Positions 27,699 to 46,554 of a stretch of 46,554 nucleotides of DNA are shown here, one piece after another. This DNA is from Sorangiineae bacterium NIC37A_2 (GTDB taxonomy: Bacteria > Myxococcota_A > Polyangia > Polyangiales > Polyangiaceae). The DNA lies in assembly GCA_002085155.1 (NCBI GenBank), contig NASX01000040.1, positions 1 through 46,554 on the forward strand. The letters are read 5' to 3'. The translations under genes and the position numbers were made by a program. The notes beneath the pieces are model-generated. The model did not search any database. It saw only the letters and a list, made by a program, of their open reading frames with translations, and was not told the origin of the DNA. The stretch's first letter is position 1, and each line of letters begins with the position of its first letter.

Positions 27699-27713
27699 TG
27701 TCGCCTCTCCGTC

Positions 27714-30245
27714 TCAGAGCGGTGCCGTCGTGCGATCGTGCACGCGCGCCGCGTGAGCCAAAGGCTCACGCGCTCCCTGCGCCGAGCGGAGCCGCTCGCG
27801 GGGCGTTCCCTTTGGGAGCGGGACAGGGCGGTCCGAGTCGTCGTTCAGTACGAGGGCGTGGGGCAAGCCGAACCCAAAAAGTCCGGCGATGTGCTCTTGG
27901 GCGCGCTTGCGCCCTGTCTTGTGGAGCCGGAGCACCGTCACGATCGCGTCGACTTCGCTCGCAAGGACCAGCGCATCGGAGACGAGCGGGTACGCGGCAG
28001 AGTCGAGGAGAACGTAGTCGTAGCTCGCGCGCACCTGACGCAGGAGCGTGGCAAGCTCACTGCTCGAGAGCAGCTCAGCGGGCGCTCCTTCGTCGAAGGA
28101 GAGGGAGTCGAAGGTTCCCAGGGAGCAGCGGACAGGGCGAGGTGTGTCAAAGGCCTCGCTCGGATCGTGGGAAGGGGAGCTCTGAGAATAGTCGGCGACA
28201 AACTCCGCGAGCAGCTTCGCGTGAGAGGGATTGCGGAGATCCGTATCGAGCACGAGCACGCGCTTGCCGTCCGCGGCGAGCATCGAAGCGAGCGCGAAGG
28301 TGCACGTGGTCTTGCCGTCACCGGGGCAGGGCGAGGTGATCAAGATGACCCCGCCTGAACCCTGCTCCGCGAGCGCAAAGGAGAGACGCGTGCGCAGGGT
28401 GCGGAAAGCTTCGACGAAGGCGGCCCCTTCTCCGTCCCCTTTGAGCTCAGAGATGGGCGTGGGTTTGCCACGTTTCGCGCCGCGGCGGGGGATGCGCGCA
28501 AAGACCGGCATCGGCCCGAGAGCGCGCAGGGTGTCGCGCTCGCTCCGCAGACGGCCGCGGAACAGCGTCACGAGGAGAACAACACCTGCTCCGAGCACGA
28601 GTCCGAGCGGCAGACTCATGAAGATGAAGGCGAGCTTCGGGCTGTCCTCTTTCCGCGGGATCTCCGGAACGTCAAGGATGCGGTTCTGGGAGACGTTCGA
28701 AGCTTTGACGATCGCAGCTTGTTGCTGCTTCTGGAGGAGGAACGAGTAGATCGAGCTGTAGACCTCGGACTCGCGCGCGAGCTGCGCGAGCTTGAGCTCG
28801 GCGCCGGGGACTGTGCGGAGCTTGTCTTCGAATTGTCCGATGATGCCGTTTAGGGTGCCGAGGTTCGCGCGCGCGCGGCTGAGGCGCCCCTTGACGTAGC
28901 CCCGGATCGACTCGAGCTGCGCGTCGACGACGGCCTGTTGCTCGCGGACCTGGGGAGCTGCGGCGTGGAAGCGGGCCTTCTGGTTCGTGAGCTCTTGTTT
29001 CGCCTGAGCCAGGGAGGTCGCGAGGGTCTCGAGGGCCGTGTCTTTGGCTTCGCCGAGCATGTAGGCCTCGATCGGAGCGTCCGGCTGGCTGAGAGCGCGC
29101 TCGACCTGGGCTAAGGCGGCGACCTCGAGGCGCGCAGCTACGCGCTGTTCCTCGTACTTGCCGATTTGGGCCACCATGGCCTGGGCTTCTTCGGTGTGGA
29201 CGACGACGCGGTTTTCGGAGCGGTAGTCGGCGAGCTGACTTTCGACGTTGTCGAGGGACCCTTGCAGGTCTCGGAGCTGCCGGGTGACGAAGGCTTCTGC
29301 GGCGGTGGCCGTCTCGGTCTTCCAGGCCTGACGCTCGGCCAAGTAGTCCTTCATGAGCGTGTCGAGGAAGCGCGCGGCCAAGAAAGGCGAAGCGCCCGTG
29401 AAGGAGAGAGTGACGACCTTGATCGGCTCGTGGCCGACCTGCTGGGGTGCGGTGATCTCGAGGGAGCGCAGGGCCGCGTCGGTCTGAAGATCGAGCGGCG
29501 TGACGACCATGGCGAGCTCGGTGCCGGGGCTCGGAGGCCCTTCTTCGCCCGCTTCGAGCGTCAGACGGAGACCCGAGAGCTCCGCTGGCTCGCCGAGAGT
29601 TCCCGCGCCGAGACGCTCTCCCTCGGCCCAGACGCTGTAGTCCCGCTCAGATTGGAAGCGCACCGTGAAGGAACGGGGCTCAACGACGCGGCCCTCGAGG
29701 GTCGCGCCTTTGGGGACGACGTGGCGCGTGGCGACGTCGAGGAGCTTCGGGTCGCGGCGGTGCAGGCGCCATGTGTAGTAGCGGAGCGGTTCGCTCTCGA
29801 GCGGAGCAAGCTCGACATTGAGTCCCGACTTGAGGACGGCTCGTTCGACGAGACTGCGACTGCCGACGATGGCGAGCTCACTCGAGACGTCTCCTTCGGT
29901 TCCGCCTGTGAGATCGATGGCGCCGGGACCTTGGTTCGTGGGCGCCCTGGGTGCGTGGAGCTCACCGAGGTAGAGCCGCCCCTTGGCCACGAACTTCATC
30001 GGCATAAAGAGCGTGATGGCGCTGACCCCGATGACGACGGCGGCCGCGACCAGGGCGATCCCGAACCAGTTGCGGACCAAGGTGTGCCAGAGCTCGGCTG
30101 GTTCGAGAGCGTCCCCGCCGGCCTGAGAGGGCGGCGAATAGGGCAAATGAGGCGGTTTCGCCCAGCGCTCGATGCGATGGAAGCCGCTCGGGCTGGTCAA
30201 GCGGATCGGCGAAACGGGCGAGCGGTCATCGGGTTGGTTCATCAT
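27714..30245 (-). CDS. wzc: Wzc-like polysaccharide co-polymerase/kinase without a C-terminal Tyr cluster
   Basis: An 843-residue inner-membrane protein with a Wzz-like N-terminal part, TM1 at about 53-76 (WFGIALVAAAVVIGVSAITLF), a long periplasmic coiled-coil region, TM2 (LGLVLGAGVVLLVTLF) and a cytoplasmic bacterial-tyrosine-kinase domain. Walker A is SPCPGDGKTT with the lysine at about residue 645, Walker A' is VLVLDTDLRNP, and Walker B is YDYVLLDSAAY. Wzc proteins control chain length and, with Wza, form the export path. Unlike typical Wzc, no tyrosine follows the SAAY sequence: the last roughly 90 residues are Arg/Pro-rich and lack the usual phosphorylated Tyr cluster. ATG 30245 has GGAG upstream; it starts four bases after the Wza stop. 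Confidence 0.92.
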   Translation of the reverse strand: MMNQPDDRSPVSPIRLTSPSGFHRIERWAKPPHLPYSPPSQAGGDALEPAELWHTLVRNWFGIALVAAAVVIGVSAITLFMPMKFVAKGRLYLGELHAPRAPTNQGPGAIDLTGGTEGDVSSELAIVGSRSLVERAVLKSGLNVELAPLESEPLRYYTWRLHRRDPKLLDVATRHVVPKGATLEGRVVEPRSFTVRFQSERDYSVWAEGERLGAGTLGEPAELSGLRLTLEAGEEGPPSPGTELAMVVTPLDLQTDAALRSLEITAPQQVGHEPIKVVTLSFTGASPFLAARFLDTLMKDYLAERQAWKTETATAAEAFVTRQLRDLQGSLDNVESQLADYRSENRVVVHTEEAQAMVAQIGKYEEQRVAARLEVAALAQVERALSQPDAPIEAYMLGEAKDTALETLATSLAQAKQELTNQKARFHAAAPQVREQQAVVDAQLESIRGYVKGRLSRARANLGTLNGIIGQFEDKLRTVPGAELKLAQLARESEVYSSIYSFLLQKQQQAAIVKASNVSQNRILDVPEIPRKEDSPKLAFIFMSLPLGLVLGAGVVLLVTLFRGRLRSERDTLRALGPMPVFARIPRRGAKRGKPTPISELKGDGEGAAFVEAFRTLRTRLSFALAEQGSGGVILITSPCPGDGKTTCTFALASMLAADGKRVLVLDTDLRNPSHAKLLAEFVADYSQSSPSHDPSEAFDTPRPVRCSLGTFDSLSFDEGAPAELLSSSELATLLRQVRASYDYVLLDSAAYPLVSDALVLASEVDAIVTVLRLHKTGRKRAQEHIAGLFGFGLPHALVLNDDSDRPVPLPKGTPRERLRSAQGAREPLAHAARVHDRTTAPL

Positions 30246-30249
30246 GCGC

Positions 30250-31356
30250 TCACTCCGAGAGGTATTTGATCTGAACGAAAGGCTGCAGAGATCCTGAGAC
30301 CGCTTGCAGAGTCGGGATGAGCTGTTCGAGGGCCATGTTCCAGCTCGTGATCGCTGTCATCGGGACGTAGACGACGTCGCCAGGTTCGAGCGGGAAGGGC
30401 GCTGCTTTGCCCTTCATGATCATGGCAGCGTCGACGACGATGAACTCGGCGCGATCGCCGATGCTGCGGATGATGCGCACCTCGCTCATCTTGCCCTGAG
30501 CTCGCTCGCGGAAGCCGAAGCCAGCGGCGGCGAGCGCCTGAAGCAAGGAGAGCTGTCCGTGAACGAAGGGGACGGCGCCGCCGCGCGTGTTGCTGCCCGG
30601 AAGGCCACCAAAAACGAACGCCTGCTCTTGGGTATTGTCGGGAACGAAGACGACGTCGCCGGTGCGGAGCGCAATATTTTGGCTCAAGTCGCCGAAGCGG
30701 AGCAGGCGAATGAAGTTGATGGGGAGCTTTCGTCCGCCGCGCGCGACGTAGGCCGTGCGCAGGCTCGCCGCTTCGAGTTGAATGGTGCCGCCAAGGGCGA
30801 GAGCCTCGAGCAAACGCAAAGGGCGGTCGCTGTACTTGAGGCCTGGGCTCGTGAACTGTCCGAGCATGTAATAACGAATGCTCCCGGGGAACAGGAGCTG
30901 GACCGTGACCTTCGGTTCGACGACGTAGGCGGCGAGCTCTTTCTCGAGAAGGAGCCGAAGGTCGTTCGAGGTCTTGCCGGCGACCTGGACCGAACCGATG
31001 AGCGGAAACTGAATCGTTCCGTCGTTATCGACCACGAAGCCGACGTTGCGTCCGTTCGGAACGGTCCCGAGTTGTCCCGCGCCCGCGTAAGCCCCAATCG
31101 CGAGCTCTGCGTGTCCGTAGACAGCGACCAGGAGCGAATCCCCCGGCCCGACCCGATAGGCCTCGGGCTCGTCAGACCCGAGCAATTCGCGCACATCCTC
31201 GTCCGTGAGCCGATCGGCGGCCGTTTCGATGACGGGGGAAGGGAGCTCCTTCCGCGTCACGGGCTGACGCCCGCCGCAGGCTGTCTGAGAGGCGAAGGCT
31301 GAGGTGAGCATGAGCGTGAGCGCAGAGCGGCGGGGGGGAAGAGATGGTTCGGTCAC
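30250..31356 (-). CDS. wza: Polysaccharide export outer-membrane protein (Wza-like)
   Basis: A 368-residue export protein with a Poly_export domain (about 65-165: YRVGPGDSLLVAVYGHAELA, VDNDGTIQFPLIGSVQVAG) followed by SLBB-like repeats (LGQFTSPGLKYSDRPLRLLEAL, GDVVFVPDNTQEQAFVFG, FPLEPGDVVYVPMTAI). It should form the outer-membrane and periplasmic channel that works with Wzc. The N-terminus has PPRRSALTLMLTSAFASQTACGG: a possible lipobox-like QTAC and also a twin-arginine-like RRSALTL, so the export route is uncertain. The start is GTG 31356. It follows the initiating transferase by 24 bp and precedes wzc by four. Confidence 0.92.
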   Translation of the reverse strand: MTEPSLPPRRSALTLMLTSAFASQTACGGRQPVTRKELPSPVIETAADRLTDEDVRELLGSDEPEAYRVGPGDSLLVAVYGHAELAIGAYAGAGQLGTVPNGRNVGFVVDNDGTIQFPLIGSVQVAGKTSNDLRLLLEKELAAYVVEPKVTVQLLFPGSIRYYMLGQFTSPGLKYSDRPLRLLEALALGGTIQLEAASLRTAYVARGGRKLPINFIRLLRFGDLSQNIALRTGDVVFVPDNTQEQAFVFGGLPGSNTRGGAVPFVHGQLSLLQALAAAGFGFRERAQGKMSEVRIIRSIGDRAEFIVVDAAMIMKGKAAPFPLEPGDVVYVPMTAITSWNMALEQLIPTLQAVSGSLQPFVQIKYLSE

Positions 31357-31380
31357 GGCCTTTGAAGCGAAGCGCGAGGG

Positions 31381-32781
31381 TTAATAAGCGTTCTTGTTCA
31401 CGAAGCCCTTCCAGAGGGTCATCGTGAGGATTTTGAGATCGAGGAGGTACGACCAATTGCGAATGTAAAAGAGGTCACATTCGATGCGGCGCTCGAGTGA
31501 AGTATCTCCGCGCCAGCCGTTGACCTGAGCCCAGCCTGTGATGCCCGCGCGCACTTTGTGCCGCAGCATGTAGTTCGGGATCTCGTGGCGGAAATTATTC
31601 ACGAAGACCGGACGCTCCGGGCGCGGCCCGACGAGGGACATCTCGCCGCGCACCACGTTCCAGAGCTGGGGCAGCTCGTCGAGGCTCGTCTTGCGGAGGA
31701 AAGTCCCGAAGGCCGTGCGGCGATTATCGTCCTTTTTGGCCCAGACAGGCCCGCTCTGGGCTTCGGCGTCGATGGCCATGGACCGGAACTTCAGCATCTT
31801 GAAGCTCTGCCCATCGAGGCCAAGTCGCTCCTGGGCGTAGAGGATAGGTCCAGGAGAAGACAGCTTTACGAGCAGCGCGATCAGCAGGAGCAGCGGGCTC
31901 AAGAGAATGATGCCGACGATCGCGAGGGAGAAGTCAGTGAAGCGCTTTGCCCAGCCGCCGAACCCCACGACCGGCGAGTCGTTCAGGTTCAGGACGGGCA
32001 TGCCGTCGAAGTTCTCGATGTTGCAGCCGAGGGCCGCGTAGGTGTTCAGGTCCGGGACGATCCGTACGTGGACTGTTTCGTCCTTGAGCCGGCGTAAGAG
32101 GAGGTCCATCTCGGCGCTCAGCGCGGCAGGGAGCGCAACAAGCACTTCGTCCGGCCGATGCTCCTGGATCACCTTCGAGATGGTCCCGAAGTGCCCGAGG
32201 GCGGGATATCCGGCGACGTCGCGCCGGGATGACCTGTCGCCCGTGACGACGCCGCGGATGCGCAGGCCGAGCTCGGGATAGGCCTCAAGGCGGCTGATGA
32301 CGGTCTCGAGGGCCGCCCCTTCGCCGATCGCGATGATGTGCCGGACGTTGTAGCCGCGGGCCCGGAGGGACCGCAGGGCGTGGAGAACGGTAGCCCGGAA
32401 GGCAAGGAGAGCGATGGTCGATACGCCTCCGAAGTAGAGGATCACGCCGCGGGAGTAACGATACTCTTCGAGCATGAAGGTCGCCGCGACGAAGGCGAGA
32501 AGCGTGACGAGGTGAGCCTTGAAGGTCGCCCCGAGAGCCCGGCTCGTCTTCAGCATGCGGCTCGACTCGTAGACGTTTTGCCACTCGAAGAGGGCGAGCC
32601 ACAGAAAGACGATGAGCGGGACCAGGGCCGCATACCCGGAGAACTCGGGTACACCCTTCGGCGCTGCGACGAGACCCGAGTGAAAGCGAAGCCAGTAAGA
32701 AAAGAACCAGCTCGCAATGACGACCAAGACGTCAATGGTTCGAAAGAGGAAGCTAAAGCCCTCGTGATAGCGTTTCAGCAT
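31381..32781 (-). CDS. Undecaprenyl-phosphate sugar phosphotransferase (WcaJ/EpsZ-like)
   Basis: A 466-residue polyisoprenyl-phosphate hexose-1-phosphate transferase that begins repeat-unit synthesis by loading a sugar phosphate, usually glucose or galactose, on undecaprenyl phosphate. The N-terminal half has four or five hydrophobic segments and a soluble CoA-binding-like middle part (NVRHIIAIGEGAALETVI). The catalytic domain starts at about 275 with KRFTDFSLAIVGIILLSPLLL, LVKLSSPGPILYAQERLGLDG, KFRSMAIDAE and DELPQLWNVVRGEMSLVGPRPERP, the hallmark of the family, and ends at GWAQVNGWRGDTSLERRIECDLFYIRNWSYLLDL (quoted in parts). GGAAGGA precedes ATG 32781. It is the first gene of the main EPS operon. 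Confidence 0.94.
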   Translation of the reverse strand: MLKRYHEGFSFLFRTIDVLVVIASWFFSYWLRFHSGLVAAPKGVPEFSGYAALVPLIVFLWLALFEWQNVYESSRMLKTSRALGATFKAHLVTLLAFVAATFMLEEYRYSRGVILYFGGVSTIALLAFRATVLHALRSLRARGYNVRHIIAIGEGAALETVISRLEAYPELGLRIRGVVTGDRSSRRDVAGYPALGHFGTISKVIQEHRPDEVLVALPAALSAEMDLLLRRLKDETVHVRIVPDLNTYAALGCNIENFDGMPVLNLNDSPVVGFGGWAKRFTDFSLAIVGIILLSPLLLLIALLVKLSSPGPILYAQERLGLDGQSFKMLKFRSMAIDAEAQSGPVWAKKDDNRRTAFGTFLRKTSLDELPQLWNVVRGEMSLVGPRPERPVFVNNFRHEIPNYMLRHKVRAGITGWAQVNGWRGDTSLERRIECDLFYIRNWSYLLDLKILTMTLWKGFVNKNAY

Positions 32782-35625: not shown

Positions 35626-36927
35626 ATGCTGGATGCCCGATTCGTCGCCGAACATCTCGACCTCGTCCGCGCGCGCTTGACTGCACGCAACGCGTCCTGG
35701 GGTCCGGCCGTCGATGCGCTGAGTGAGCTCGCGGAGGAGCGGCGCCGTCTCATCGGCGAGACCGAGGCCCTCGCCGCGCGGCGGAACGCTGCGAACAACG
35801 AGATGAGCCAGCTCGCGAAGGGTCCGGACAAGGCAGCGTTCGCCGCGCGCCGCGAAGAGCTCAAGGCGATCTCCGAGTCGCTCAAGGCCAGCGAAGAAAA
35901 GCTGAAGGTCGTGCTCGCTGAGTTCGAGGAGCGCCTCCTTTCGATCCCGAACCTCCCTCACGAAGGAGCTCCCGTTGGATCTTCCGAGGAAGACAACCGA
36001 GAGGTGCGCGTCTGGGGGAAGAAGCCGAGCTTCGATTTCGCCCCCAAGGCGCACTACGACATCGCCGGCTCGAGCCTCGATTTCGAGCGCGCCGGTAAGC
36101 TGAGCGGGGCCCGCTTCTCCGTCTTGTTCGGAGATTTGGCGCGGCTCGAGCGAGCGCTCATCGCCTTCATGCTCGACGTGCACACGCGCCAGCACGGCTA
36201 CACGGAGGTCGCTGTTCCTTACCTCGTGCGCGCGGACGCGCTCCGGGGCACGGGCCAGCTCCCGAAGTTTGAGAAGGACCTCTTCAAGACGGGGCGCGGT
36301 GAAGCCGATCCTGAACCCCTCTATCTGATCCCGACCGCGGAGGTTCCTGTCACGAACCTCCACGCCGATGAGATCCTCGACGCGTCCGTCCTGCCCCTCC
36401 GCTATACGGCGTTCACGCCCTGTTTCCGCAGCGAAGCGGGAAGTTACGGCCAGGACGTGCGCGGGCTGATCCGTCAGCACCAGTTCGACAAGGTCGAGCT
36501 CGTTCAGTTCGTCGAGCCCGACAAGAGCATGGAAGCTCTCGAAGAGCTCACAGGGCATGCGGAGATGATCCTCCAGATGCTCGGGCTGCACTATCGCGTC
36601 GTCGAGCTCTGCACGGGCGACCTCGGCTTCTCGGCCCAGAAGACCTACGACCTCGAGGTCTGGCTGCCGAGTCAGGATAAATTCCGCGAGATCTCGAGCT
36701 GCTCGAGCTTCGGCGACTTCCAGGCGCGCCGCGCCCAGATCCGCTACCGCCCGAGCCCGAAGGAGAAGCCGCGCGCCGTGCACACGTTGAACGGTTCCGG
36801 ACTCGCCGTCGGTCGAACCCTGATCGCCATCCTCGAGCAATACCAGAACGCTGACGGCACCGTCACCATCCCCGCCGCCCTCCGCCCCTTCATGGGCAAG
36901 GACGTGCTCGAGTTTTCGAAGTCCTAA
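35626..36927 (+). CDS. serS: Seryl-tRNA synthetase
   Basis: Cytosolic class II aminoacyl-tRNA synthetase that charges tRNA-Ser. The product from ATG 35626, [20 protein letters not shown], is a standard SerS N-terminus; reading frame upstream is open but unlike the family. The long helical arm (about 25-110, [21 protein letters not shown]) binds the tRNA variable arm. Motif 2 is visible as [25 protein letters not shown] (in parts) and motif 3 as [16 protein letters not shown]; the [15 protein letters not shown] segment recognises serine. The 433 residues match the family's normal length. It is flanked by the SRPBCC gene and a convergent outer-membrane-like gene. No sign of disruption. Confidence 0.97.
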
Positions 36928-36978
36928 GATGCGGCGACCTGCTCGGGGCTGCTCGTGACAGAGGCCTCGAGCTTCAGA

Positions 36979-37716
36979 TCAAAGTCGTCCGCCGATGCCC
37001 AGCCCGATCACCCATTGTTCGAGGGGTGGTGTGTCCACAAGGTCCACGAAGAACGTGTGGTCGATGACCTCGGCGCGATCGATGCTGACGAGTCGCTGCG
37101 ATTCGCCCCGCATGTAGCTGAGGGATGCGACACAAAAGGCTTGCTCTCGGAAATCCCAGCTGAGCCCTGCGCTGAGCCCGAAAGCGGAGGCAGCCGATCG
37201 GGTTTCTTCGCTCACTTCTCCGTCGAAATCCCGCGCCTTGTTGCTCGTGAGGATGGCCCACATGCCGCCTCGCGCTTCGAGGAAGGGGCGGAACGCCCCC
37301 TCACTGGGAGTGAGGCGAATCGTCGGCATGATCCAGAGGCCTTGTTGGTGGAGCCAGAAGTGGGCCACGTTGGCATCTCTCTGGACGAACGTGCGACTCT
37401 TCGGGGCAAAGAAGTCGCCGCCGACCGCGAGACCAAAGAGGAGCGGGAGCTTCTGATACCGAGCGCCCCCGAACACATCGATGCCGAGACCGATCGAATC
37501 CGTCCCGATTTGGAGAGCGGCTCCTGGAATGGCTAGGTGAGCGCTGATGGAGAGCTCGAGCTCCCAATCGGACCTGCTTGCCTCGGAGGCGGGGGCGTTC
37601 AGCGCCGAGGCGGTCCCAGGGGCACCCTTCTCCTCGTCGACCGCTTGAGCACCGCTACTCGTCGAAAGGACGAGCCCAGCGACGAAGGTAGCGCGGCGAG
37701 AGCGTCGATTCGACAT
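36979..37716 (-). CDS. Probable outer-membrane beta-barrel protein
   Basis: A 245-residue exported protein: signal MSNRRSRRATFVAGLVLSTSSGAQA, then a short low-complexity linker and a beta-strand-rich body (ELELSISAHLAIPGAALQIG, LGIDVFGGARYQKL, LLFGLAVGGDFF, IMPTIRLTPSEGAFRPFLEAR, SAFGLSAGLSWDF, WVIGLGIGGRL) that looks like an eight- to ten-stranded barrel ending in GGRL. AGGGG precedes ATG 37716 at suitable spacing. It follows the DUF354 gene by 11 bp on the same strand. Function unknown; the barrel call rests on strand pattern. Confidence 0.72.
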   Translation of the reverse strand: MSNRRSRRATFVAGLVLSTSSGAQAVDEEKGAPGTASALNAPASEASRSDWELELSISAHLAIPGAALQIGTDSIGLGIDVFGGARYQKLPLLFGLAVGGDFFAPKSRTFVQRDANVAHFWLHQQGLWIMPTIRLTPSEGAFRPFLEARGGMWAILTSNKARDFDGEVSEETRSAASAFGLSAGLSWDFREQAFCVASLSYMRGESQRLVSIDRAEVIDHTFFVDLVDTPPLEQWVIGLGIGGRL

Positions 37717-37727
37717 GAGACATCCCC

Positions 37728-38762
37728 TCAGGTTGCGACGATCTTGTCAATGTAGTGGACCATGAACTCTGTGAGGTCGATGCGCTCCTCGAGAAGGCGC
37801 GTGTGGGCCGCGCGCATCTCGCCTCGGAGGGTCGGGCGGGCTAGGAGCTCTTCGAGCTTCCGGAGGGCGGAGGGAGCTTCCTTGCGCGTGAAGTTCCAGA
37901 CGAGTCCGTAGCGCTGCTCTTGTTCCGTCGTGTACCCACGGCCCGTATCGGCGATGTAGAAGGCGGGTACCCCGAGGACGGCGGCTTCGCTCGCCATCGT
38001 GGCACTTTCGCCGACGAGAAAGCGAGAGAAGGCGATGTAGTGGTGGATGTGCTCGGGGGGAGCGCGGAAGCGGTACTGCTCGAGATCCGGCGGCAGAGGG
38101 CCTTCGCTCGAGATGAGGACGCGACCGTGGGCTTCGAGGGCGCGCACCATGTTCCGCTTGAGCTCGAGGCTGAAGCCCGCTTCGCCGACGTCGTGAGACG
38201 CCTGCCAGGACACAAAGCGCACGATGAAATAGGGAGATCCCGGGTCGACGCCGCCCGCGCGGACGATCTCGGGATCGGGCGTGAAGCGGGCCGGGTGCAG
38301 GTAAGCGAGCTCGTGGTAGCTCGGGTAAGTGACGTGGCGCCCGCGCACGGGAGCCGAGTAACACTCAGGCGTCACGACCGAGTGGGCGAGGGGATAGACA
38401 AACGCGTTCGTAATGTGAGCGTTCTCAGTATCGTAGAAGACGACAGCTGGCTTTCCGATGAGCCGGCCGACCTGAACGATCGTGACGCCCATGACTCCGA
38501 TGAGCACGTCCGGACGAAACTTGCGCGCGCGGGAGAGCATCTTCGCGTCGCGCACGAGCATCTCCGAGAGGAGCGAGAGTTTCCCCTTCTTGAGGGCGCT
38601 GATCGACTCGTAAGGGATCTGGTACGCGTCGAGCAGCGCGTTAGCGACGTCCTTCTCGCGACTCAGAACCAGCACCTCGTCACCCCGCTCCTTCCAAACG
38701 CCGATCGCATTGCGAAAGACGTGCACATGGGCGGGGTGCAGGATCTCGACCAAGACGCGCAT
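37728..38762 (-). CDS. DUF354 family protein (glycosyltransferase/epimerase-like fold)
   Basis: A 344-residue protein assigned to DUF354, a family with a GT-B-like fold related to UDP-GlcNAc 2-epimerases and glycosyltransferases, of unresolved function. The N-terminus is MRVLVEILHPAHVHVFRNAI and the family-typical HPAHV-type start is clear; further on are GVMGVTIVQVGRLIGKPAVVFYDTENAHITNAF (in parts), RFVSWQASHDVGEAG and GESATMASEAAVLGVPAFYI, where a donor-binding motif would be expected. I chose ATG 38762 rather than the GTG one codon earlier. It is probably co-transcribed with the MscS gene upstream (63 bp) and the barrel gene downstream. It may serve surface sugar modification. Confidence 0.8.
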   Translation of the reverse strand: MRVLVEILHPAHVHVFRNAIGVWKERGDEVLVLSREKDVANALLDAYQIPYESISALKKGKLSLLSEMLVRDAKMLSRARKFRPDVLIGVMGVTIVQVGRLIGKPAVVFYDTENAHITNAFVYPLAHSVVTPECYSAPVRGRHVTYPSYHELAYLHPARFTPDPEIVRAGGVDPGSPYFIVRFVSWQASHDVGEAGFSLELKRNMVRALEAHGRVLISSEGPLPPDLEQYRFRAPPEHIHHYIAFSRFLVGESATMASEAAVLGVPAFYIADTGRGYTTEQEQRYGLVWNFTRKEAPSALRKLEELLARPTLRGEMRAAHTRLLEERIDLTEFMVHYIDKIVAT

Positions 38763-38825
38763 CACTGCGACTTTTAGCCGAGCCCGCCCATGAGTCGAGT
38801 CGGAGGCACAGAGCGCGAGTTCCGC

Positions 38826-39971
38826 TCAGGTGGCCGGCGCCGGCGCGGGCCCCTGGGGCGCGCCGAAGGCTCCCGGGGGACCATCGCGGAAACCCAAGAT
38901 TTGGACCGGGAGCGCGAAGGGAATCTCCGCAGCTTTGAACTCGCGGTAGATGTGGAGATTGATGGCCTGTTGGCGATCCATGTACATGTTGTAATCGCCG
39001 CTTAAGACGTAATAGACGACCTCGTATTCGAGTCCGTATTGGCCGAAGGCGAAGAAGTGGGCGCGGTCGAAGCGGACGTCGGGCTGGGCGCGGACGGCTT
39101 CCTCGAGGATCTGGCGGGCCCGCTCCAGCTTCTCGGCCGGGAGGTTGTACTCGACGCTGAGCTTGAAGACGATGCGCCGTTCGCGCATGCGGCCGTAGTT
39201 GCGGATGAAGCGCTTGGCCAAATCGCCGTTCGGCAGGACGATCTGCTCTCCGCTCAGGGAGTTGATGCGCGTGGTGCGGAGACCGATCGATTCAACCGTG
39301 CCGAGTACATCGCCCAGGATCACGAACTCGCCGATATCGAACGGCCGGTCGAAGTACATGAAGAGTCCGGCAAACATGTCGCCGAGGATGCTCTGAACCG
39401 CCAAAGCTGCAGCGACGCCGCCGACACCGAGGCCGGCGACGACCGCGTTGAGCTCGACGCCGAGGTTCGAAAGCACGAGCAGCGTGACCACGGTCCAGAT
39501 GACGATCCGCCCCATGAAGCGGATGCCCCCCGCGGCTGTTCTCGATCGCGCGTCGCCTTCTCGAAGCGCCCAAGCCTCAAGGACCGCTCCCAAGATCGCT
39601 TGCGCCCAGCGGGCGACCTGAATGCCAAGAAGCAGGGAGACGAGTCCTGTGAGAATTTTCTCACCGGCGCCCGGGAGCTCGATAGCGAGGCGCGCGGCGC
39701 TGATCCCGAGGGCGAGATAAAGGGACCAGCCGGTGGCCTTGACGACTTGGGTCCAAGAGCCATGTCCCACGGTTGTCGTTTCGCTGAGAGGTCTCTTAGC
39801 GAGGCGTTTCGCGACGACCCCTTTGATGAGGCGAATGAGCCCCATCACCGCGAAGAAAGCTGCGATGGAGATGCTCCAGCTGAGGAGCGAGTTCTGAGCG
39901 AAATGGGTCTCTGAGAGGACTGGAACGGAGAGGTTGTCGAGCTCGAGCTCTTTCGGCAGGTCGATCTTCAT
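38826..39971 (-). CDS. MscS-family mechanosensitive channel
   Basis: A 381-residue inner-membrane channel that opens on membrane tension to release solutes. The start at ATG 39971 (AAAGG nine bases upstream) gives MKIDLPKELELDNLSVPVL before four or five hydrophobic segments; an earlier ATG adds an unlikely polar stretch. The pore helix and middle domain are visible as GVGGVAAALAVQSILGDMFAGL, MYFDRPFDIGEFVILG, VESIGLRTTRINSLSGEQIV and LPNGDLAKRFIRNYGRM, all family hallmarks. A C-terminal cytoplasmic domain follows, with a Pro/Gly-rich tail (FRDGPPGAFGAPQGPAPAPAT). It heads a possible operon with DUF354 and the barrel gene. Confidence 0.93.
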   Translation of the reverse strand: MKIDLPKELELDNLSVPVLSETHFAQNSLLSWSISIAAFFAVMGLIRLIKGVVAKRLAKRPLSETTTVGHGSWTQVVKATGWSLYLALGISAARLAIELPGAGEKILTGLVSLLLGIQVARWAQAILGAVLEAWALREGDARSRTAAGGIRFMGRIVIWTVVTLLVLSNLGVELNAVVAGLGVGGVAAALAVQSILGDMFAGLFMYFDRPFDIGEFVILGDVLGTVESIGLRTTRINSLSGEQIVLPNGDLAKRFIRNYGRMRERRIVFKLSVEYNLPAEKLERARQILEEAVRAQPDVRFDRAHFFAFGQYGLEYEVVYYVLSGDYNMYMDRQQAINLHIYREFKAAEIPFALPVQILGFRDGPPGAFGAPQGPAPAPAT

Positions 39972-40212
39972 CCGGCGTGGCCTTTCTCCGCATGCGCGGC
40001 ATAATGATTCAGAAAGTGGCGGGCTTTCCGTCCACAAGGGGTTTAACATGCTGGGCGCGGGGGCCCAGGGGACGAGGAGCGAGGACCTTCGACTCCTTCA
40101 TCTGGATCGGTCAGCCGCATCCCACAAATGCTTCATCAAGAAACACCGAGGTTCCTTCGGGAAAAGGCAACGACCTTGACGCGGGAGCGTACCTCTGGCC
40201 TACGCTGACTGG

Positions 40213-41672
40213 ATGGTATTGGGGAATCATGCGCTGAAGGGGCGAGGGGTAGCGCTCCTGGTTGGCATCGTTAGCTTTGTGCCGCTGGTCTTGGCGTCTC
40301 CGGACGAGGGGCGAATCCTAAGTTTCGAGAGCCTGAGCGATTGGACCATGAGTGAGGGTGTCGGGACCGTGAGCTTGGACAACAGCTCAAGCACGGGCAA
40401 TCACTCGATCACGCTCAGCGGCAGCGGATTTCGGCGCATGGCTGGCGCGAATGTAACGACGCTCGGCTCCGGAGACACGAGCGTCATCAAGTCGACGTTC
40501 GGGTCGATGCTCGCCTAGAGTCCTGGGAATCGGCGGGCATAGTTGTGAGAATCCCGTCCCGAGGCATCTATTGGCAAGACCTTGGCATGGTTGGTTTAGG
40601 AGGAGTCCAACCGGGCACTTGGTCCACGCTCTCCTTCGCCGTTCCGACTGGCCTGAAGGAGACCCTTCAGAGTGCGGCGCTCCAAGACATAGGGCTAGTG
40701 CTGGCCGCAAATACGAGCACCGCGCCTGTGACTTTCGATAGCCTTAGGTTCCTGACGCCACCCCCAGGGAATCCCCCTCCGCCGCGCCCGACGGCCGCAT
40801 CTCCGTCAGCGAGTGAGCTTGGAAAGCCCTATACGCCTCGCTTCCTGTCGTGTTCGACGTCGACCACGACAGTCCTCGATGTAGACGCCGAGTTCAAAGA
40901 CATCTGGGCAGGGCGTGAGACGCCTTGGCAGGGTAAGCGCACGTCTCAAACACCGAAGGTCGGTCTGCGTTTCTCGGGACCAGTCAATCCGACAATGGTG
41001 AATGCTTCGTTCTTTCCCACCGATGCGAACAAATGTGGAACCAGGATTCAAGCGGCCGGAGTTACGGCTCCGGCTCTTTGGCAAGGTTCGTCGACGACCC
41101 CCTCCATTGGGCGCCTCTCCGCCAGCGACTACAACGCGATCGTACTCAGCTCTGTCTCGGGAACTCCGAACTCTGAGGGTCCGGCGATCTCCAGGGGAGA
41201 GATCGAGGGTCCTACGGATGCGGTCGCAAAGATCGAAGCGGAGTTCGTTCGGCGCTGGCCGGAGTCAAAGTATGCGACGGCATTGGAGGAGCGACTCACC
41301 CAAGAGGCAAAGGAGCGACAGGAGGCGACGAACGAGGCCATGAGGATGTCTGAAATCAACAACGTCTGGTACGACGTGAAGAACCAGGGAGACCGCCTCA
41401 CGGTGCTACGCCATCGGCTCAAATGGTTACAAGAGTGGGGCCCGAAGACCACGCAGAACGCTCGTAATATCGAGAACATGAAGGCTGGCATTCGCCTCGA
41501 GCAGAACAGGTTCTGCCAAGCCAAGAGGGAGCTTCTCAAGGAGCTCAAGGCATCCGAGTACCAATCGGTTGTGAAGAGTCACTGCGACACCCAAGCCCCC
41601 GTCGATGATCTTGGGACGGGTGAGGTGGCCCTCACACCTCAATGCCGGCAGCAGTTCGTGTCCGGGTGTTAG
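40213..41672 (+). pseudogene. Secreted protein of unknown function, frameshifted
   Basis: Two consecutive frames together encode one protein. The first (from ATG 40213) starts with a signal MVLGNHALKGRGVALLVGIV and a beta-rich segment (FESLSDWTMSEGVGTVSLDN...). It stops at 40516, but from about 40500 the overlapping frame continues without break: RVDARLESWESAGIVVRIPS and RGIYWQDLGMVGLGGV, which reads well. One base is missing near 40498-40503 (TTCGGG), so a frameshift explains the interruption. The restored protein is about 480 residues; a Pro-rich linker and a Lys/Glu/Arg-rich helical region (EEFVRRWPESKYATALEERL and on) follow, ending in CRQQFVSGC. Family unknown. The change may be real or an error in a G run. 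Confidence 0.6.
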
Positions 41673-42313
41673 AGAGTCCAATCCCCGGGACACTGGAACT
41701 CGTCCGGACTCACCGAGCGTGTGTCTGTCGTCGTAGCACATTCAAGTCGATGTCTCGCGCTCGCTAGATCCCTGGCGGCTATGAGCATCAAATATAGGCC
41801 GCCTTGAAGCTCGTCCGCGATCTCCTTCAACTGAACGGCATAATTTGCGTCCTGCTGATGGGGTGTCAGCTTCAAAAGTTCATGGAACGTGGCGGAATAC
41901 CGGGCCTCTCGATTGGCCAAACGATCCCATACATCGAAATACAATATCGCGGCTTCGGCTTCATGCGGCCTCAGCTTGGCGATCACATCTCCAAGGGGGA
42001 AATTCGGCTTGAGAAACAGGAACCCTGACGGGAGCTTGTTGATAACCTCAAAAGTCAAAGACTTCGTCTCAACGGCCTCGACTACCGCCTGCGTTTCGAA
42101 TCGCGTGGGGAATCCTCTCATCAATGTCTCGACAACTCGCCAGGTAGTTTTTGCTTCCGTACAGAGCGCTGCCTTTAGGGTTGTTCTCGCTCGTCGGCGT
42201 TCGTACAGATCTTTGAGGATCAAAAGGACGAATCCGACGACGATTCCTGCTGCCGGCGACTTACCGAACTCGCTGGTAAAGACTACTCGGGAAAGTTCAT
42301 TGAGGCAGTCCAT
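41669..42313 (-). CDS. Membrane-anchored protein of unknown function
   Basis: A 214-residue protein with one hydrophobic segment near the N-terminus (AAGIVVGFVLLILKDLYERR), followed by a cytoplasmic-type domain of about 160 residues: ARTTLKAALCTEAKTTWRVV, helices around LPSGFLFLKPNFPLGDVIAKL and EIADELQGGLYLMLIAARDL. I do not recognise the family. I chose ATG 42313; TTG 42352 would add 13 residues and start just six bases after the small gene at 42359. It converges with the frameshifted secreted protein (four-base overlap). It is in the same accessory block as the Kiwa-like pair. A single N-terminal helix plus a cytoplasmic helical domain is compatible with a membrane effector, but this is speculation. 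Confidence 0.6.
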   Translation of the reverse strand: MDCLNELSRVVFTSEFGKSPAAGIVVGFVLLILKDLYERRRARTTLKAALCTEAKTTWRVVETLMRGFPTRFETQAVVEAVETKSLTFEVINKLPSGFLFLKPNFPLGDVIAKLRPHEAEAAILYFDVWDRLANREARYSATFHELLKLTPHQQDANYAVQLKEIADELQGGLYLMLIAARDLASARHRLECATTTDTRSVSPDEFQCPGDWTL

Positions 42314-42358
42314 CGCTTCTCTAAAAAGAACGGCGAAACAAAGCTCTATCAAGGAGAC

Positions 42359-42520
42359 CTACTTCTTCGGCTTTGTTCCACGAGGGATGTCTTCCGGAGT
42401 TCGCGCTGGAACATTGGAGTGCTTCCTGATCGAATCGCCGACGTAATCCGGTCTGGCGACTGGCTTTGCAGGCTGTCGTGGTTGATTCTGAGGCTTTGGC
42501 GGCTCTTTTCGTGTTGCCAT
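42359..42520 (-). CDS. Small Pro/Lys-rich protein (53 aa)
   Basis: Reading from ATG 42520 gives 53 residues starting MATRKEPPKPQNQPRQPAKP and ending GTKPKK, stop TAG at 42361. The sequence is hydrophilic and basic, rich in Pro, Lys, Arg, with a distinct central DYVGDSIRKHSNVPARTPED. It is followed six to 46 bases later by the membrane-anchored gene on the same strand, so it may be co-transcribed. AAGG lies 15 bases upstream of the ATG, not ideally spaced. No family recognised; small proteins of this composition are often nucleic-acid or membrane binding. Confidence 0.45.
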   Translation of the reverse strand: MATRKEPPKPQNQPRQPAKPVARPDYVGDSIRKHSNVPARTPEDIPRGTKPKK

Positions 42521-42628
42521 GATCACATACAGCTACCTTGTCGATCCGTGGAAGTCCACCACCCAAAGGGCGGACTAGAAATGTCTGCCCGGCCTTGCCA
42601 CGAGGCCCACGGCCGCCATGCTTGCCGC

Positions 42629-42862
42629 ATGACCCAGGACACGTTTAGCATCTACACGCGAACCTTCGCGAAGGTTGCCTCGGGAGCAAAGGTCACGGAG
42701 TCTGACTTCGGCGTTCTTCGACTGCGGCGGTTCCTCCGGCCGTTCGATCAACGAGGGCAGGTGGCCGTTGCTCTGGCTGTGCAGGACGTGACCCAGGGAG
42801 ACTCGAAGCTCAAGTCGAAGGCCGAGTTCGAGGCCGAAGTGAAGCGGCTCCTTGGCAGCTGA
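42629..42862 (+). CDS. Small protein of unknown function (77 aa)
   Basis: ATG 42629 gives MTQDTFSIYTRTFAKVASGA followed by KVTESDFGVLRLRRFLRPFD and a C-terminal KSKAEFEAEVKRLLGS. It looks like a short soluble, helical protein with no signal. An alternative ATG at 42581 adds 16 residues without a clear ribosome site; neither start has a strong site. It is followed after 29 bases by the SH3 protein on the same strand, so the two may be one operon. Not recognised. Confidence 0.5.
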   Translation: MTQDTFSIYTRTFAKVASGAKVTESDFGVLRLRRFLRPFDQRGQVAVALAVQDVTQGDSKLKSKAEFEAEVKRLLGS

Positions 42863-42891
42863 ACTGGTCCTTGAGCTATAAGGATCGGACA

Positions 42892-43977
42892 ATGGATGTC
42901 TTTGGTAAAGGACTGGGGAGATTCTCAGAAGAGCTCGCGAGAATTTCTCGCTTCACGTCGCCCCAATGGCTTACGGATCTCGAAAGGACGACTAAGGCCA
43001 TGAGCGGCGTTGGCGAAATGACCCGGTTCTGGGGGACGCACGCCGCCCTCGCCAAATCACTTCGTCCTGGCATCCTCACCGACTTCGCTGCGATTCAGGA
43101 CAGGCTCCGTCTGAGACCACAAATGGGCGGGGTGTTCGAAACGAGTTTGAGAACGAACAACGTCTTCTCAGGGGTTCCTACTGACCACTTGAGGCTTCGA
43201 GGATTGACGGAGCTGGCTCGCCTTCAACAGTCGCTTGGGAGTGTCCGTGCGCACAGCGCCACCGAGCGTCTCTTGGCTGCCTCAGCGAAGTACTCGCTGC
43301 TTGAATCCTCCCTTGTTGGCAGAAGCTTTCTACCGGGCAGGTTTGATACATTGCGGGCCATTGCCGCCGGAGCCCAATCGGTTGCCTGGATGGAACCGCT
43401 GCTCCCCGCGATGCTCTCGCTCACCGAGCTTGCCGAAGAAGACCTTCAGGAAGAAGACCGTCTGGCGAGGCTCCGCAGCATCGTCGCGTCCGTTCTGGCT
43501 TCTGCGCCACGTCATCTCAATTTTGACCGGCTCTTCGCGATCTTTGCTTTCATCTGGTCATTGTTGCCCAACGGCCAGATCCAAGAGCTGTCCGAGCAAA
43601 TGAAGGAGGAGTTTCGACAGCTCCGTGAGGAGATTCGAGAGAATCGAGTAGCTGCCGAACTCGACGCAGAGCAGCTTCGTGAGTTGCAGATCCAAGTGCT
43701 TCTTGCCACCGAGGGGATCGAGTCCGGCTACGTTGCCACCATCGAAACAACCGCTCGTATCAAGACAAGGCGGAGCGGCCGGGCTTCCGTTCTCGGCACG
43801 CTGAGTCCAGGGGAGCCAGTCATCGTGCTGCTTCTACGAGGACGTTGGGCCTACATCGAGGCTGAGCTTGGAACACGGCACGTCGTGGGCTGGATCCCTA
43901 AGAAGGCCCTCTCGAAGCCCAGGAAGGCATTATTGCCGGATCTAGAAGAGGCTGAATCCCTGGGAGACCGAGAATAG
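42892..43977 (+). CDS. Protein with bacterial SH3 domain and coiled coil
   Basis: A 361-residue protein from ATG 42892, which follows AAGGA. The N-terminal 200 residues are helical and lack a recognised domain (FGKGLGRFSEELARISRF, LRLRGLTELARLQQSLG). A hydrophobic stretch LFAIFAFIWSLLP at about 212-225 may be a membrane-spanning or re-entrant segment. Residues about 229-273 are Glu/Gln/Arg-rich, probably a coiled coil (QEEL-like, QMKEEFRQLREEIRENRV). The C-terminal SH3_3-like domain (280-340) shows TARIKTRRSGRASVLGTLSP, GEPVIVLLLRGRWAYIEAE and WIPKKALS, typical of bacterial SH3 folds that bind peptides or cell wall. It lies next to the Kiwa-like pair. Function unknown. Confidence 0.7.
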   Translation: MDVFGKGLGRFSEELARISRFTSPQWLTDLERTTKAMSGVGEMTRFWGTHAALAKSLRPGILTDFAAIQDRLRLRPQMGGVFETSLRTNNVFSGVPTDHLRLRGLTELARLQQSLGSVRAHSATERLLAASAKYSLLESSLVGRSFLPGRFDTLRAIAAGAQSVAWMEPLLPAMLSLTELAEEDLQEEDRLARLRSIVASVLASAPRHLNFDRLFAIFAFIWSLLPNGQIQELSEQMKEEFRQLREEIRENRVAAELDAEQLRELQIQVLLATEGIESGYVATIETTARIKTRRSGRASVLGTLSPGEPVIVLLLRGRWAYIEAELGTRHVVGWIPKKALSKPRKALLPDLEEAESLGDRE

Positions 43978-44050
43978 TTCCGCGATTTCGTGTGCGTTGT
44001 TGCCCTGTTCTCGAGCCGGGGTGCACAGCATCGATCTCCCGGCCCAACCG

Positions 44051-44908
44051 TTACGCCTGGCCCTTGATTGGTCGCTTGAAGCTCGCAAAGTAGAGGCGGT
44101 CGTCCTGGGTGAGACTGCCAAGGTAGTCGTCAGATAGGAGCCCCACGGCCTCCTTCAGTCCCTTCCGATCTGAGGGGATGACCATGGCAGTCCCCTGGAA
44201 GTCGAGACTGAGCCCGCACCTCTTGGCGGCCGACCTGATGCGCTTCATGTCGAACTCCGTTTCCTTGGAGGACAGCATTGCGATTCGCCGCCTCATCGTC
44301 TTGTTCGCAGCCTTCTTGAGCTTCTCGGAGTCCTGGACCACAAAATTGTCAGAAGCGAAGAATTCCTCGATTACCTCATCGGAGGCTTCGGTAAAGAACT
44401 CCTCCATGTCCAGAAAGCGACGCACTTGGTGTTCGTTGCGAAAGAGAAGCTGCCCACCCTCATAGAGCGCATCGATTCGGTTCGTCGGGATCAAGCCCAC
44501 CTGCGTGTTGAATTTGAAGTGCTGGTTGCCAAAGAACAAAGCTGACTGAGGAGCCATCATGTTGCTCTTCGTGACCGCCTGAAAACACATGGTGGGAGAC
44601 TCCCCTGGCTTTACGTGCACCAGAGCGACGGGCGGGTCGTTCTCAAGCGTCTTCTTGTCCAGAGCAGGCAGGGCGGAAGGTAGGCTCTTCCTGATCTTCC
44701 CAAGCGGCCCTGAGAGGTCGTACCCCACGGTCATCACCTCCTCGGGAGGTGGGTGATACCCGGGACAGTATTCCACGAGCTCTCTGTCGACCATGTAGTC
44801 GGCGGCTAGTCTGGCGAACTTCTGGTCGAGTTCCTCCGCCGTCCCCTTTTCTAGCGGGATCGTCCTAACTTCTTGGTTGAGATGAATCGCCAGAAAAAAC
44901 CCTGTCAT
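44051..44908 (-). CDS. kwaB: KwaB-like protein (DUF4868), Kiwa anti-phage defence
   Basis: A 285-residue soluble protein that I assign to the DUF4868/KwaB family, the cytoplasmic partner in the Kiwa anti-phage defence system. The family's C-terminal pattern is clear: helices around FLDMEEFFTEASDEVIEEFF and EKLKKAANKTMRRRIAML, then GLSLDFQGTAMVIPSDRKGL and VGLLSDDYLGSLTQDDRLYF followed by ASFKRPI, similar to the LLNDDYL-x-S-x-LT-x(3)-Y segment in KwaB. The N-terminal half (GFFLAIHLNQEVRTIPLE) begins with a beta strand pattern. ATG 44908 follows AGGGCAGGG. It starts ten bases after the KwaA-like stop, in the usual kwaA-kwaB order. The assignment rests on pattern and neighbourhood; sequence divergence from E. 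coli is likely high. Confidence 0.72.
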   Translation of the reverse strand: MTGFFLAIHLNQEVRTIPLEKGTAEELDQKFARLAADYMVDRELVEYCPGYHPPPEEVMTVGYDLSGPLGKIRKSLPSALPALDKKTLENDPPVALVHVKPGESPTMCFQAVTKSNMMAPQSALFFGNQHFKFNTQVGLIPTNRIDALYEGGQLLFRNEHQVRRFLDMEEFFTEASDEVIEEFFASDNFVVQDSEKLKKAANKTMRRRIAMLSSKETEFDMKRIRSAAKRCGLSLDFQGTAMVIPSDRKGLKEAVGLLSDDYLGSLTQDDRLYFASFKRPIKGQA

Positions 44909-44918
44909 TGACCCTGCC

Positions 44919-45446
44919 CTAACTCGAGTTGACTCCTGAATCTTGGAGCCAAAGATAGTCCGAAAGTTTGACTATAGACAAGGTTCCTGGGGCCAGAACT
45001 CTCCTGCGGCTAATGATAAGTACCAGTGCTCCTTGATCGTTTCTGGCGGAATAGAATTTGTACCCCATCAAGGCGACGACCGGGTTCACATGAAACAGCT
45101 GCTGTTGCCAGAGGGTCACCGCCACCGAAACTGTGAAAACAATGAGTCCCCAGGACACGGCTGTTTTGGGCTCTTCAAGCGCAAGTAGCGGTAGAGCGTA
45201 CGCGACGAGGAAGGCCAGGGCGTCCCCCTCCTTTGGGGTGATATCACTGGCCTCAAGAGGAACCGGGGCAACGACTTTCTCGGCACCCCTCAAGAGCAGA
45301 GCACAGATGAAGGCGAGGCCGCAGGCCGTGCCCGCCAGCAGCTTGGCGATGCCCCACATTCCCCCGTCGGCCAGGACCCCCGCATACACCAGCCCGATGG
45401 GGGCAATGCTGGTAAGAATGAGGAGGGCTTGAGCAAAAGCGGTCAC
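44919..45446 (-). CDS. kwaA: KwaA-like membrane protein, Kiwa anti-phage defence
   Basis: A 175-residue membrane protein with four hydrophobic segments: about 5-24 (AQALLILTSIAPIGLVYAGV), 31-51, 76-90 and 97-113, then a cytoplasmic C-terminal tail of 60 residues beginning NPVVALMGYKFYSARNDQGA and containing VLIISRRRVLAPGTLSIVKL and DYLWLQD. The length, four helices and the NP-x-x-x-x-x-GYKFY segment followed by short strands match my recollection of KwaA, the membrane sensor part of Kiwa. It precedes the KwaB-like gene with ten bases between. The start is GTG 45446, with a weak ribosome site. The alternative, a generic four-helix membrane protein beside an unrelated DUF4868 gene, is less likely because of the pairing. 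Confidence 0.65.
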   Translation of the reverse strand: MTAFAQALLILTSIAPIGLVYAGVLADGGMWGIAKLLAGTACGLAFICALLLRGAEKVVAPVPLEASDITPKEGDALAFLVAYALPLLALEEPKTAVSWGLIVFTVSVAVTLWQQQLFHVNPVVALMGYKFYSARNDQGALVLIISRRRVLAPGTLSIVKLSDYLWLQDSGVNSS

Positions 45447-45704
45447 GGGAAAGATCTCAAGTGTATCGGTCGATTCGTTAAAGTGCTGCGTCGTTTTCTG
45501 AGGTGAGACAGGAAAGGACCCGCATCCCGGTCAATAAGATGAAAAATCAACTGGCGTGCTGAGGCTAGGCTTCACCCGATGGTGCAAAAACTGGCCCAAC
45601 TTTTGACTCTCACTGTATTGAGGGTGAACGGGCTACCGAAGAATCTTTTTGTGACTACCTCTGTTCTCACGACAACTGCGAGAGCTGCAGCGGCGACAAC
45701 CCCT

Positions 45705-46463
45705 ATGATTCGAATTGGTCGGATTGTCAGTAGAGCAAACGCTTCCGTGTTGGTGTTGCTTTCCGTTCTGCACCTCTGCGCTTGCGGAGGTGCTACGAGC
45801 ACTGACTCGGATCCCCCTTTAGAAAGCGAAGCTCGAAGGGCAGGGAGGGCCTATCGCGTCCTAGCCATCGTGAATGACCCAAATCTCACTATCGTATCCT
45901 TCGACGATCTTGCCAATCCAGAGCGTGTCGAAGCGCCAATCCCTTCGATGGGCTATCGCGCTTACGACGTACAGTGGAGCTTCGATGGTCGTCGCCTTGC
46001 TGCGGCGACGACCGACACCGAGATCAATTACCAGGCCTATTTCGGCTTCTCCGAGGAGAATTGGACAACACCAGAGCGATTGACGAAGACTCGGCTCGAG
46101 AGCGCGGCCGTTCGCTTTCGCTGGCTCGGGGACGGTCGGTATCTCACCGTTTATCACGATCACTTTCGCCTTGCGAGGACGGCGAGCAATCGCTCGACGC
46201 ACGTGCCGATCGGGGACAGCGACCTGTTTGCGTGGAGCGGTGACGTTGGTCCCAGCTATTTGATTCAAGACGGCACGAGGTTCTATTGGTTCCATCCGGA
46301 GCGCGAGACGGTCGAGATCCGAGCCAACGAACTGGTGTGGTTTCAGGCTACCCGCGGCGGTAATCAGCTGGTTCTGATCTATGAGGGAGAGGGTGCGCCG
46401 ATAGCTTCAGATCATTCCAACATCTGGAGCGTAAAGGGCAAGCCGCAAGAAGGTTGGACCTGA
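45705..46463 (+). CDS. Beta-propeller-like lipoprotein, probably truncated by an insertion sequence
   Basis: A 252-residue predicted lipoprotein. ATG 45705 gives MIRIGRIVSRANASVLVLLS ending in the lipobox-like LHLCAC; earlier ATGs are in an unlikely leader. The mature part (about 30-252) has short repeated strands such as YRVLAIVNDPNLTIVSFDDL, YRAYDVQWSFDGRRLAAATT and VRFRWLGDGRYLTVYHDHF, which resemble the blades of TolB/WD40-type propellers (W-S-x-DGRRLA). The stop codon TGA at 46461 coincides with the predicted end of an insertion sequence, so the true protein may be longer. A full propeller would need more blades than seen here. Confidence 0.62.
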   Translation: MIRIGRIVSRANASVLVLLSVLHLCACGGATSTDSDPPLESEARRAGRAYRVLAIVNDPNLTIVSFDDLANPERVEAPIPSMGYRAYDVQWSFDGRRLAAATTDTEINYQAYFGFSEENWTTPERLTKTRLESAAVRFRWLGDGRYLTVYHDHFRLARTASNRSTHVPIGDSDLFAWSGDVGPSYLIQDGTRFYWFHPERETVEIRANELVWFQATRGGNQLVLIYEGEGAPIASDHSNIWSVKGKPQEGWT

Positions 46464-46554
46464 TCCGATTTTCCGGACAGGTTGTTAAGCACTATGCCGC
46501 AAGGCGCGGCTTCTCACAAGTTTCAAATGCCACTGGGCTCAGGTAGCCGAGCGC
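46461..46554 (-). mobile_element. End of an IS3-family insertion sequence
   Basis: The right edge holds the transposase C-terminus (separate entry) and, beyond its stop, 30 bases that end in TGATCCGATTTTCCGGACAG when read from 46461 to 46480 on the plus strand. IS3-family elements typically begin with TG and end with CA, and the TCCGGA/GTCCGGAAAA-type terminus is common among them. I infer that base 46461 is the element's end. The other end lies outside the window. Confidence 0.6.
46493..46554 (-). CDS. IS3-family transposase OrfB, C-terminal end (partial)
   Basis: Reading the minus strand from base 46554 gives ALGYLSPVAFETCEKPRLAA and a TAG stop at 46495-46493. LGYLSPVAFE corresponds to the typical C-terminus of IS3-family integrase-type transposases (LGYxSPxEFE). 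Only 20 residues lie in the window; the catalytic DDE domain is outside. IS3-family transposases move DNA by a copy-out mechanism. Confidence 0.8.

What the first reader, a model, noticed from the sequence alone, without database searches (positions are those of the whole stretch)
44051..45446. Divergent two-gene Kiwa-like anti-phage system
A four-helix membrane protein (175 aa) and a DUF4868/KwaB-like protein (285 aa) are ten bases apart in the order kwaA-kwaB, in an accessory block beside an insertion sequence. Kiwa is an established two-gene defence system in which KwaA is the membrane sensor and KwaB the cytoplasmic effector. The C-terminal segments (LLSDDYLGSLTQDDRLYF in KwaB; NPVVALMGYKFYS in KwaA) support the call. 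In this apparent myxobacterium the pair would be a divergent branch.
Basis: partly seen in the sequence, partly recalled or inferred. Interest (0 to 1): 0.8.

Follow-up and report, generated by a model that had tools for sequence, protein, structure and literature searches.

The report
Divergent Kiwa anti-phage gene pair

Summary
Two minus-strand ORFs lie where described: kwaA 45446-44919, a 10-base gap, kwaB 44908-44051. KwaB matches PADLOC KwaB almost end to end (E 3e-38) and narrowly passes Pfam's KwaB cut-off (27.9 against 26.3 bits). KwaA matches PADLOC KwaA end to end (E 1.4e-30) but misses NCBIfam's KwaA equivalog cut-off (45.2 against 100 bits). AlphaFold2 models (mean pLDDT 72 and 78) match solved Kiwa structures first: KwaB Z 12.9, next other protein 2.4; KwaA Z 17.2, next 5.2. 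Identity to relatives is only 22-25% (10 KwaB) and 24-31% (9 KwaA), so 'divergent' is fair. kwaA lies just upstream of kwaB in 9 of 11 relative loci; in the other two kwaB starts at a contig end. The 'insertion sequence' is only a repeat end at the contig edge. This is a new, divergent member of a known system; nothing found points to a new mechanism. Phage defence by this copy is inferred, not shown.

The parts
44919..45446 (-). kwaA: 175-aa membrane protein with four long helical stretches and C-terminal strands, GTG start; the proposed membrane sensor/scaffold
   Evidence: PDLC00221 E 1.4e-30, residues 1-168 on model 2-169/173; model m2e71c07be6a3 matches KwaA 9mrx_A, Z 17.2, rmsd 3.1, 170 aligned
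44051..44908 (-). kwaB: 285-aa DUF4868/KwaB protein, ATG start; the proposed cytoplasmic DNA-binding effector
   Evidence: PDLC00222 E 3e-38, residues 9-281 on model 10-291/292; PF16162 27.9 bits against cut-off 26.3; model mee82de471e68 matches KwaB 9nyu_A, Z 12.9, rmsd 5.4, 252 aligned

Best explanation
The pair is a Kiwa anti-phage system. KwaA most likely assembles in the inner membrane and responds to phage attack there; KwaB, made from the same operon, most likely docks on KwaA and then binds incoming phage DNA, blocking its replication and late transcription. Shown here: two adjacent co-directional intact genes, homology of both to Kiwa proteins, fold match of both, and the same gene order in relatives. 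Inferred from published work on other Kiwa systems (review PMC12904381, passages): tetramer and lattice formation, sensing at the injection site, DNA binding without cleavage. Not shown: that this copy is expressed or protects its host.
For: PADLOC KwaB and KwaA near-full-length hits; Pfam KwaB above cut-off. Foldseek matches at E <= 0.001 are Kiwa chains only: 6 of 6 for KwaB, 7 of 7 for KwaA. VIA-align Z 12.9 and 17.2 with a wide gap to the next other protein. kwaA just upstream of kwaB in 9 of 11 relative loci; the two misses have kwaB at a contig start. Defence genes beside the pair in 4 of the 6 relative loci whose neighbours were read. The annotators of Pf phage PfAC02a call the same pair KwaA/KwaB.
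Against: KwaA is below NCBIfam's equivalog cut-off (45.2 against 100 bits) and KwaB has no NCBIfam hit. By sequence alone phmmer finds no PDB chain for KwaB at E <= 1 and only E 0.022 for KwaA; a three-row KwaB profile ranks KwaB second (E 0.13) behind an unrelated repressor. KwaB's Foldseek TM-scores are modest (0.53-0.56 by query length, rmsd 6.3-7.7), and residues 119-135, 168-172 and 261-285 are poorly modelled. No significant PADLOC hit among five neighbouring proteins. Of 11 relatives 10 keep a TNSK motif near the KwaB C-terminus; the window protein does not. No promoter-like or terminator-like consensus around the pair (the scan covers sigma-70-type promoters only).
Confidence: 0.93

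Rival explanations
1. A decaying or inactive Kiwa remnant: homologous, but no longer functional, in an accessory block next to a mobile repeat.
For: Long end branches in both trees; the flanking 294-aa ORF runs into the repeat at the contig edge; the TNSK motif kept by 10 of 11 relatives is not kept.
Against: Both frames are intact and of normal length, gene order and spacing are kept, and both folds are predicted.
Confidence: 0.1
2. A Kiwa-derived pair with a changed sensing or effector step, mechanistically distinct from the studied Kiwa systems.
For: 22-25% identity to every KwaB relative found; C-terminal motif change.
Against: The fold aligns with solved KwaB over 252 residues, and the solved KwaB also lacks the TNSK motif in the aligned C-terminus, so its loss is not special.
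Confidence: 0.07
3. Chance pairing of unrelated membrane and cytoplasmic proteins.
For: Weak direct sequence matches to single PDB chains.
Against: HMM hits of both proteins, fold matches of both and shared gene order.
Confidence: 0.005

Closest known systems
Kiwa with solved structures (KwaA/KwaB; PDB 9mrg, 9mrr, 9mrx, 9mtn, 9nyu, 9o0i; that these come from E. coli is recalled)
   Same: Same two-protein make-up and the same folds; a shared NP-AL-G-K-Y stretch in KwaA and SDDYL-S stretch in KwaB.
   Different: 10-15% identity in the structural alignments; KwaB 285 against 315 residues and KwaA 175 against 195.
PADLOC KwaB PDLC00222/PDLC00234 and KwaA PDLC00221/PDLC00210 subfamilies, with relatives in Pf phage PfAC02a, a Bartonella sp. 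HY406 plasmid, and Sphingomonadales, Rubrivivax and Lachnospiraceae MAGs
   Same: 7 of 7 KwaB of alignment A3 and 8 of 8 KwaA of A6 match these models (the phage and plasmid rows are in A3 only); same gene order.
   Different: Only 22-25% (KwaB) and 24-31% (KwaA) identity; no defence gene recognised around the window pair.

Membership tests
Kiwa | KwaB (DUF4868/PF16162) protein | tested here: met
   PDLC00222 E 3e-38; PF16162 27.9 bits against cut-off 26.3. The margin is thin: a six-frame genome search with PF16162 did not list it at E <= 0.001
Kiwa | KwaA membrane protein | tested here: met
   PDLC00221 E 1.4e-30; four long helical stretches; 9mrx_A Z 17.2, rmsd 3.1, 170 aligned
NCBIfam NF041622 KwaA equivalog (the curated core group, narrower than Kiwa as PADLOC draws it) | KwaA scores above the curated cut-off | tested here: not met
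   45.2 bits against 100; so the protein is not filed in this equivalog group
Kiwa | kwaA and kwaB adjacent on one strand, kwaA first | tested here: met
   10-base gap; same order in 9 of 11 relative loci, the other two with kwaB at a contig start
Kiwa | Fold of solved KwaB | tested here: met
   9nyu_A Z 12.9, rmsd 5.4, 252 aligned; next other protein Z 2.4
Kiwa | KwaA tetramer, KwaB dimer, their supercomplex; DNA binding by KwaB | not testable with these tools
   only single chains were predicted; needs biochemistry
Kiwa | Protection against phage | not testable with these tools
   needs plaque assays

The most novel reading that the evidence does not exclude
A deep, long-branch Kiwa lineage whose KwaA senses, or whose KwaB acts, differently from the studied Kiwa systems, for example tuned to phages of a bacterium with another cell envelope.
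Probability: 0.07. Interest if true: 0.4.

Novelty: new member of a known kind. Interest (0 to 1): 0.15.

Why it matters
It adds a divergent Kiwa sequence from a phylum where this KwaB subfamily was rare in the sample (PDLC00222 in 2 of 377 genomes, own genome included). Such outliers help to point at residues that may matter: KwaB P53, A95, Q110, F156, A175, R206, Y262 are invariant in 9 sequences; KwaA P16, A22, Y83, P86, P122, Y132, G139, I145 in 8. It does not change what is known about the system.

Tried and rejected
Single-protein scans for close relatives found none: KwaB in genome contigs and viral contigs, KwaA in viral contigs. The A1 alignment found 4 loci in genome contigs and none in viral contigs. 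KwaB by tblastn at E <= 1e-5: 1 record among plasmids, 1 among phages. KwaA among plasmids at E <= 0.01: 4 records, of which only the Bartonella one was read further.

Prevalence in the window's phylum depends on the query: 2 of 377 with the protein, 2 of 377 with PDLC00222, 1 of 377 with A3, own genome included each time. The Pfam KwaB search rang nowhere, not even in the own genome (0 of 377), so it says nothing about absence and is not used.

An identity for the 3' repeat was sought with its 20-aa minus-strand frame against plasmids: no match. From memory its ending resembles the C-terminus of an IS3-type transposase; no call shows that.

One search compared KwaB with an alignment that contains it: trivial, not used. 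The main Kiwa paper (Cell 2025, doi 10.1016/j.cell.2025.07.002) is not held, so its residue-level data were not checked. 'Kiwa' with 'myxobacteria' and 'defense systems' gave 0 papers; of the 12 papers listed out of 29 none held both 'Kiwa' and 'Myxococcota'. That does not prove that none exists.

Considered and rejected: unrelated neighbours paired by chance. The weak SIR2 hit of the 368-aa neighbour (E 0.029) is not credited.

Full report
What is there. On the minus strand lie a 175-aa ORF (45446-44919, GTG start) and, 10 bases after its stop codon, a 285-aa ORF (44908-44051, ATG start). They lie in the last 6.5 kb of the contig, where GC per 1-kb step is 0.55-0.60 against 0.60-0.70 over the first 40 kb. 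The contig ends at 46554.

Family tests. PADLOC: the 285-aa protein matches KwaB PDLC00222 at E 3e-38 over residues 9-281 and three more KwaB models at E <= 1e-20; the 175-aa protein matches KwaA PDLC00221 at E 1.4e-30 over residues 1-168 and ten more KwaA models at E <= 1e-5. Pfam: KwaB PF16162 at 27.9 bits, cut-off 26.3; no family for the 175-aa protein at E <= 1. NCBIfam: KwaA NF041622 at 45.2 bits against a cut-off of 100; nothing for KwaB. PHROGs: only families of unknown function. Direct sequence comparison with the PDB: nothing for KwaB at E <= 1; KwaA 9mrg_A first, E 0.022; a three-row KwaB profile gives KwaB 9mrx_K at E 0.13, second to an unrelated repressor. So by plain sequence the link to the solved proteins is weak; it runs through the subfamily models and the fold.

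Fold tests. AlphaFold2 models from alignments of 9 KwaB (A5) and 8 KwaA (A6): mean pLDDT 72.4 and 77.9, pTM 0.56 and 0.67. Foldseek against the PDB: 6 chains at E <= 0.001 for KwaB, all KwaB, TM-scores 0.53-0.56 by query length; 7 for KwaA, all KwaA, 0.56-0.72. VIA-align 2, a second look at Foldseek's own matches: KwaB 9nyu_A Z 12.9, rmsd 5.4, 252 aligned, next other protein Z 2.4; KwaA 9mrx_A Z 17.2, rmsd 3.1, 170 aligned, the other two KwaA entries 13.2, next other protein 5.2. The tool warns that helical proteins can reach about 13 without kinship; 17.2 and the gap to 5.2 speak against that here. KwaB residues 119-135, 168-172 and 261-285 are poorly modelled.

Relatives and gene order. KwaB relatives were found in a Bartonella plasmid (L017), Pf phage PfAC02a (L018), four genome contigs (L019-L022), the phylum of G380 (5 of 398 genomes, G380 = L022 included; three full loci L027-L029 and one partial, L030), and once, distantly, in the window's own phylum (L003/L011/L014). 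Among ORFs of these 11 loci a KwaA profile finds kwaA just upstream of kwaB in 9 of 11; in the two misses (L014, L030) kwaB starts at a contig end. L017 and L018 supplied rows of the KwaA profiles; L019-L022 served as rows only for the later scan, so 7 of the 9 finds are independent of the profile that found them. In L021 the gap is about 70 bases; in the others the genes touch, overlap or lie a few bases apart.

Divergence. Identity of the window KwaB to 10 relatives is 22-25%, of the window KwaA to 9 relatives 24-31% (the partial L030 was left out of both, and L014 has no kwaA). In trees of 11 and 10 rows the window's end branch is 2.81 and 2.61 changes per column (medians 0.58 and 0.59), with no well-supported group that holds it; only L014 is longer, in the KwaB tree. 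Its place is therefore unresolved. Ten of 11 relatives keep a TNSK motif near the KwaB C-terminus; L014 and the window protein do not, nor does the solved KwaB in the aligned region, so its loss does not mark a new function.

Neighbourhood. None of five neighbouring proteins has a significant PADLOC hit (best SIR2, E 0.029). One ends in a weak SH3-like match (E 0.0017, below Pfam's cut-off), and the gene inward of the block is an MscS-type channel. In relatives the pair sits beside defence genes in 4 of the 6 loci whose neighbours were read: type I restriction in L017 and L019, type I-C cas genes in L021, ShosTA in L018. L022 gave one hit, to RtcR-type CARF-AAA-HTH regulator models, and the one neighbour of L028 that was scanned gave none (10 proteins of L019, L021, L022 and L028). 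Neighbours of L014, L020, L027, L029 and L030 were not scanned. The last 100 or so bases of the window recur at other contig ends of the genome, and the 294-aa ORF at 45579 runs into that repeat. The DNA of 36000-46454 was compared with ten genomes (one same genus, nine same family; only 30 of the first-look candidates scored in each): 6 of 10 had a match. Three matches are long, 72-74% identity over about 36.0-36.9 kb; one is 375 bases in the same stretch; the rest are 35-45 bases at E 6e-4 to 9e-4. Two of these short ones fall inside kwaB (about 44421-44458, G041) and kwaA (about 45314-45348, G071); I take them for chance, since no protein match was listed in those genomes. The one same-genus genome listed, G309, shows no KwaB.

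Mechanism. From the review PMC12904381 (passages): KwaA forms inner-membrane tetramers bound by KwaB dimers in lattices, KwaA senses infection at the membrane, and KwaB binds injected DNA and stops replication and late transcription without cutting it. [quoted passage not shown] there Kiwa of Streptococcus thermophilus gave 5- and 4-log reductions for two lactococcal phages and about 1 log for streptococcal phages. PMC12322248 (passages) lists Kiwa as 'DNA degradation', against the review. For PfAC02a, the published relative, the effect of Kiwa could not be told apart from that of ShosTA (PMC11878078, passages). For the window pair all of this is inference from homology.

Verdict. A real, sequence-divergent Kiwa pair: known system, new member, low surprise.

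Noticed in passing
46455-46554: The last 100 or so bases recur at 97-100% at the ends of three other contigs of the same genome (C79, C148, C62), with a 24-base match near the end of C91: a mobile repeat that breaks the assembly, possibly an insertion sequence.
   Followed up: partly
45579-46463: 294-aa ORF that runs into the repeat at about 46455 and so looks cut; only very weak beta-propeller matches (E 0.07-0.2).
   Followed up: no
42871-43977: 368-aa ORF with a weak C-terminal SH3-like match (PF08239, E 0.0017, below cut-off), next to the Kiwa pair; function unknown.
   Followed up: partly
L021 5286-11893: In a MAG contig the Kiwa pair is followed, 2 bases after the kwaB stop codon by mechanical ORF start, by cas3-cas5-cas8c of type I-C, as if one operon with CRISPR genes; L020 shows a similar run of ORF lengths, not scanned.
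   Followed up: partly
25372-32781: Polysaccharide synthesis/export genes: glycosyltransferase, GNVR/AAA protein, Poly_export, bacterial sugar transferase.
   Followed up: no
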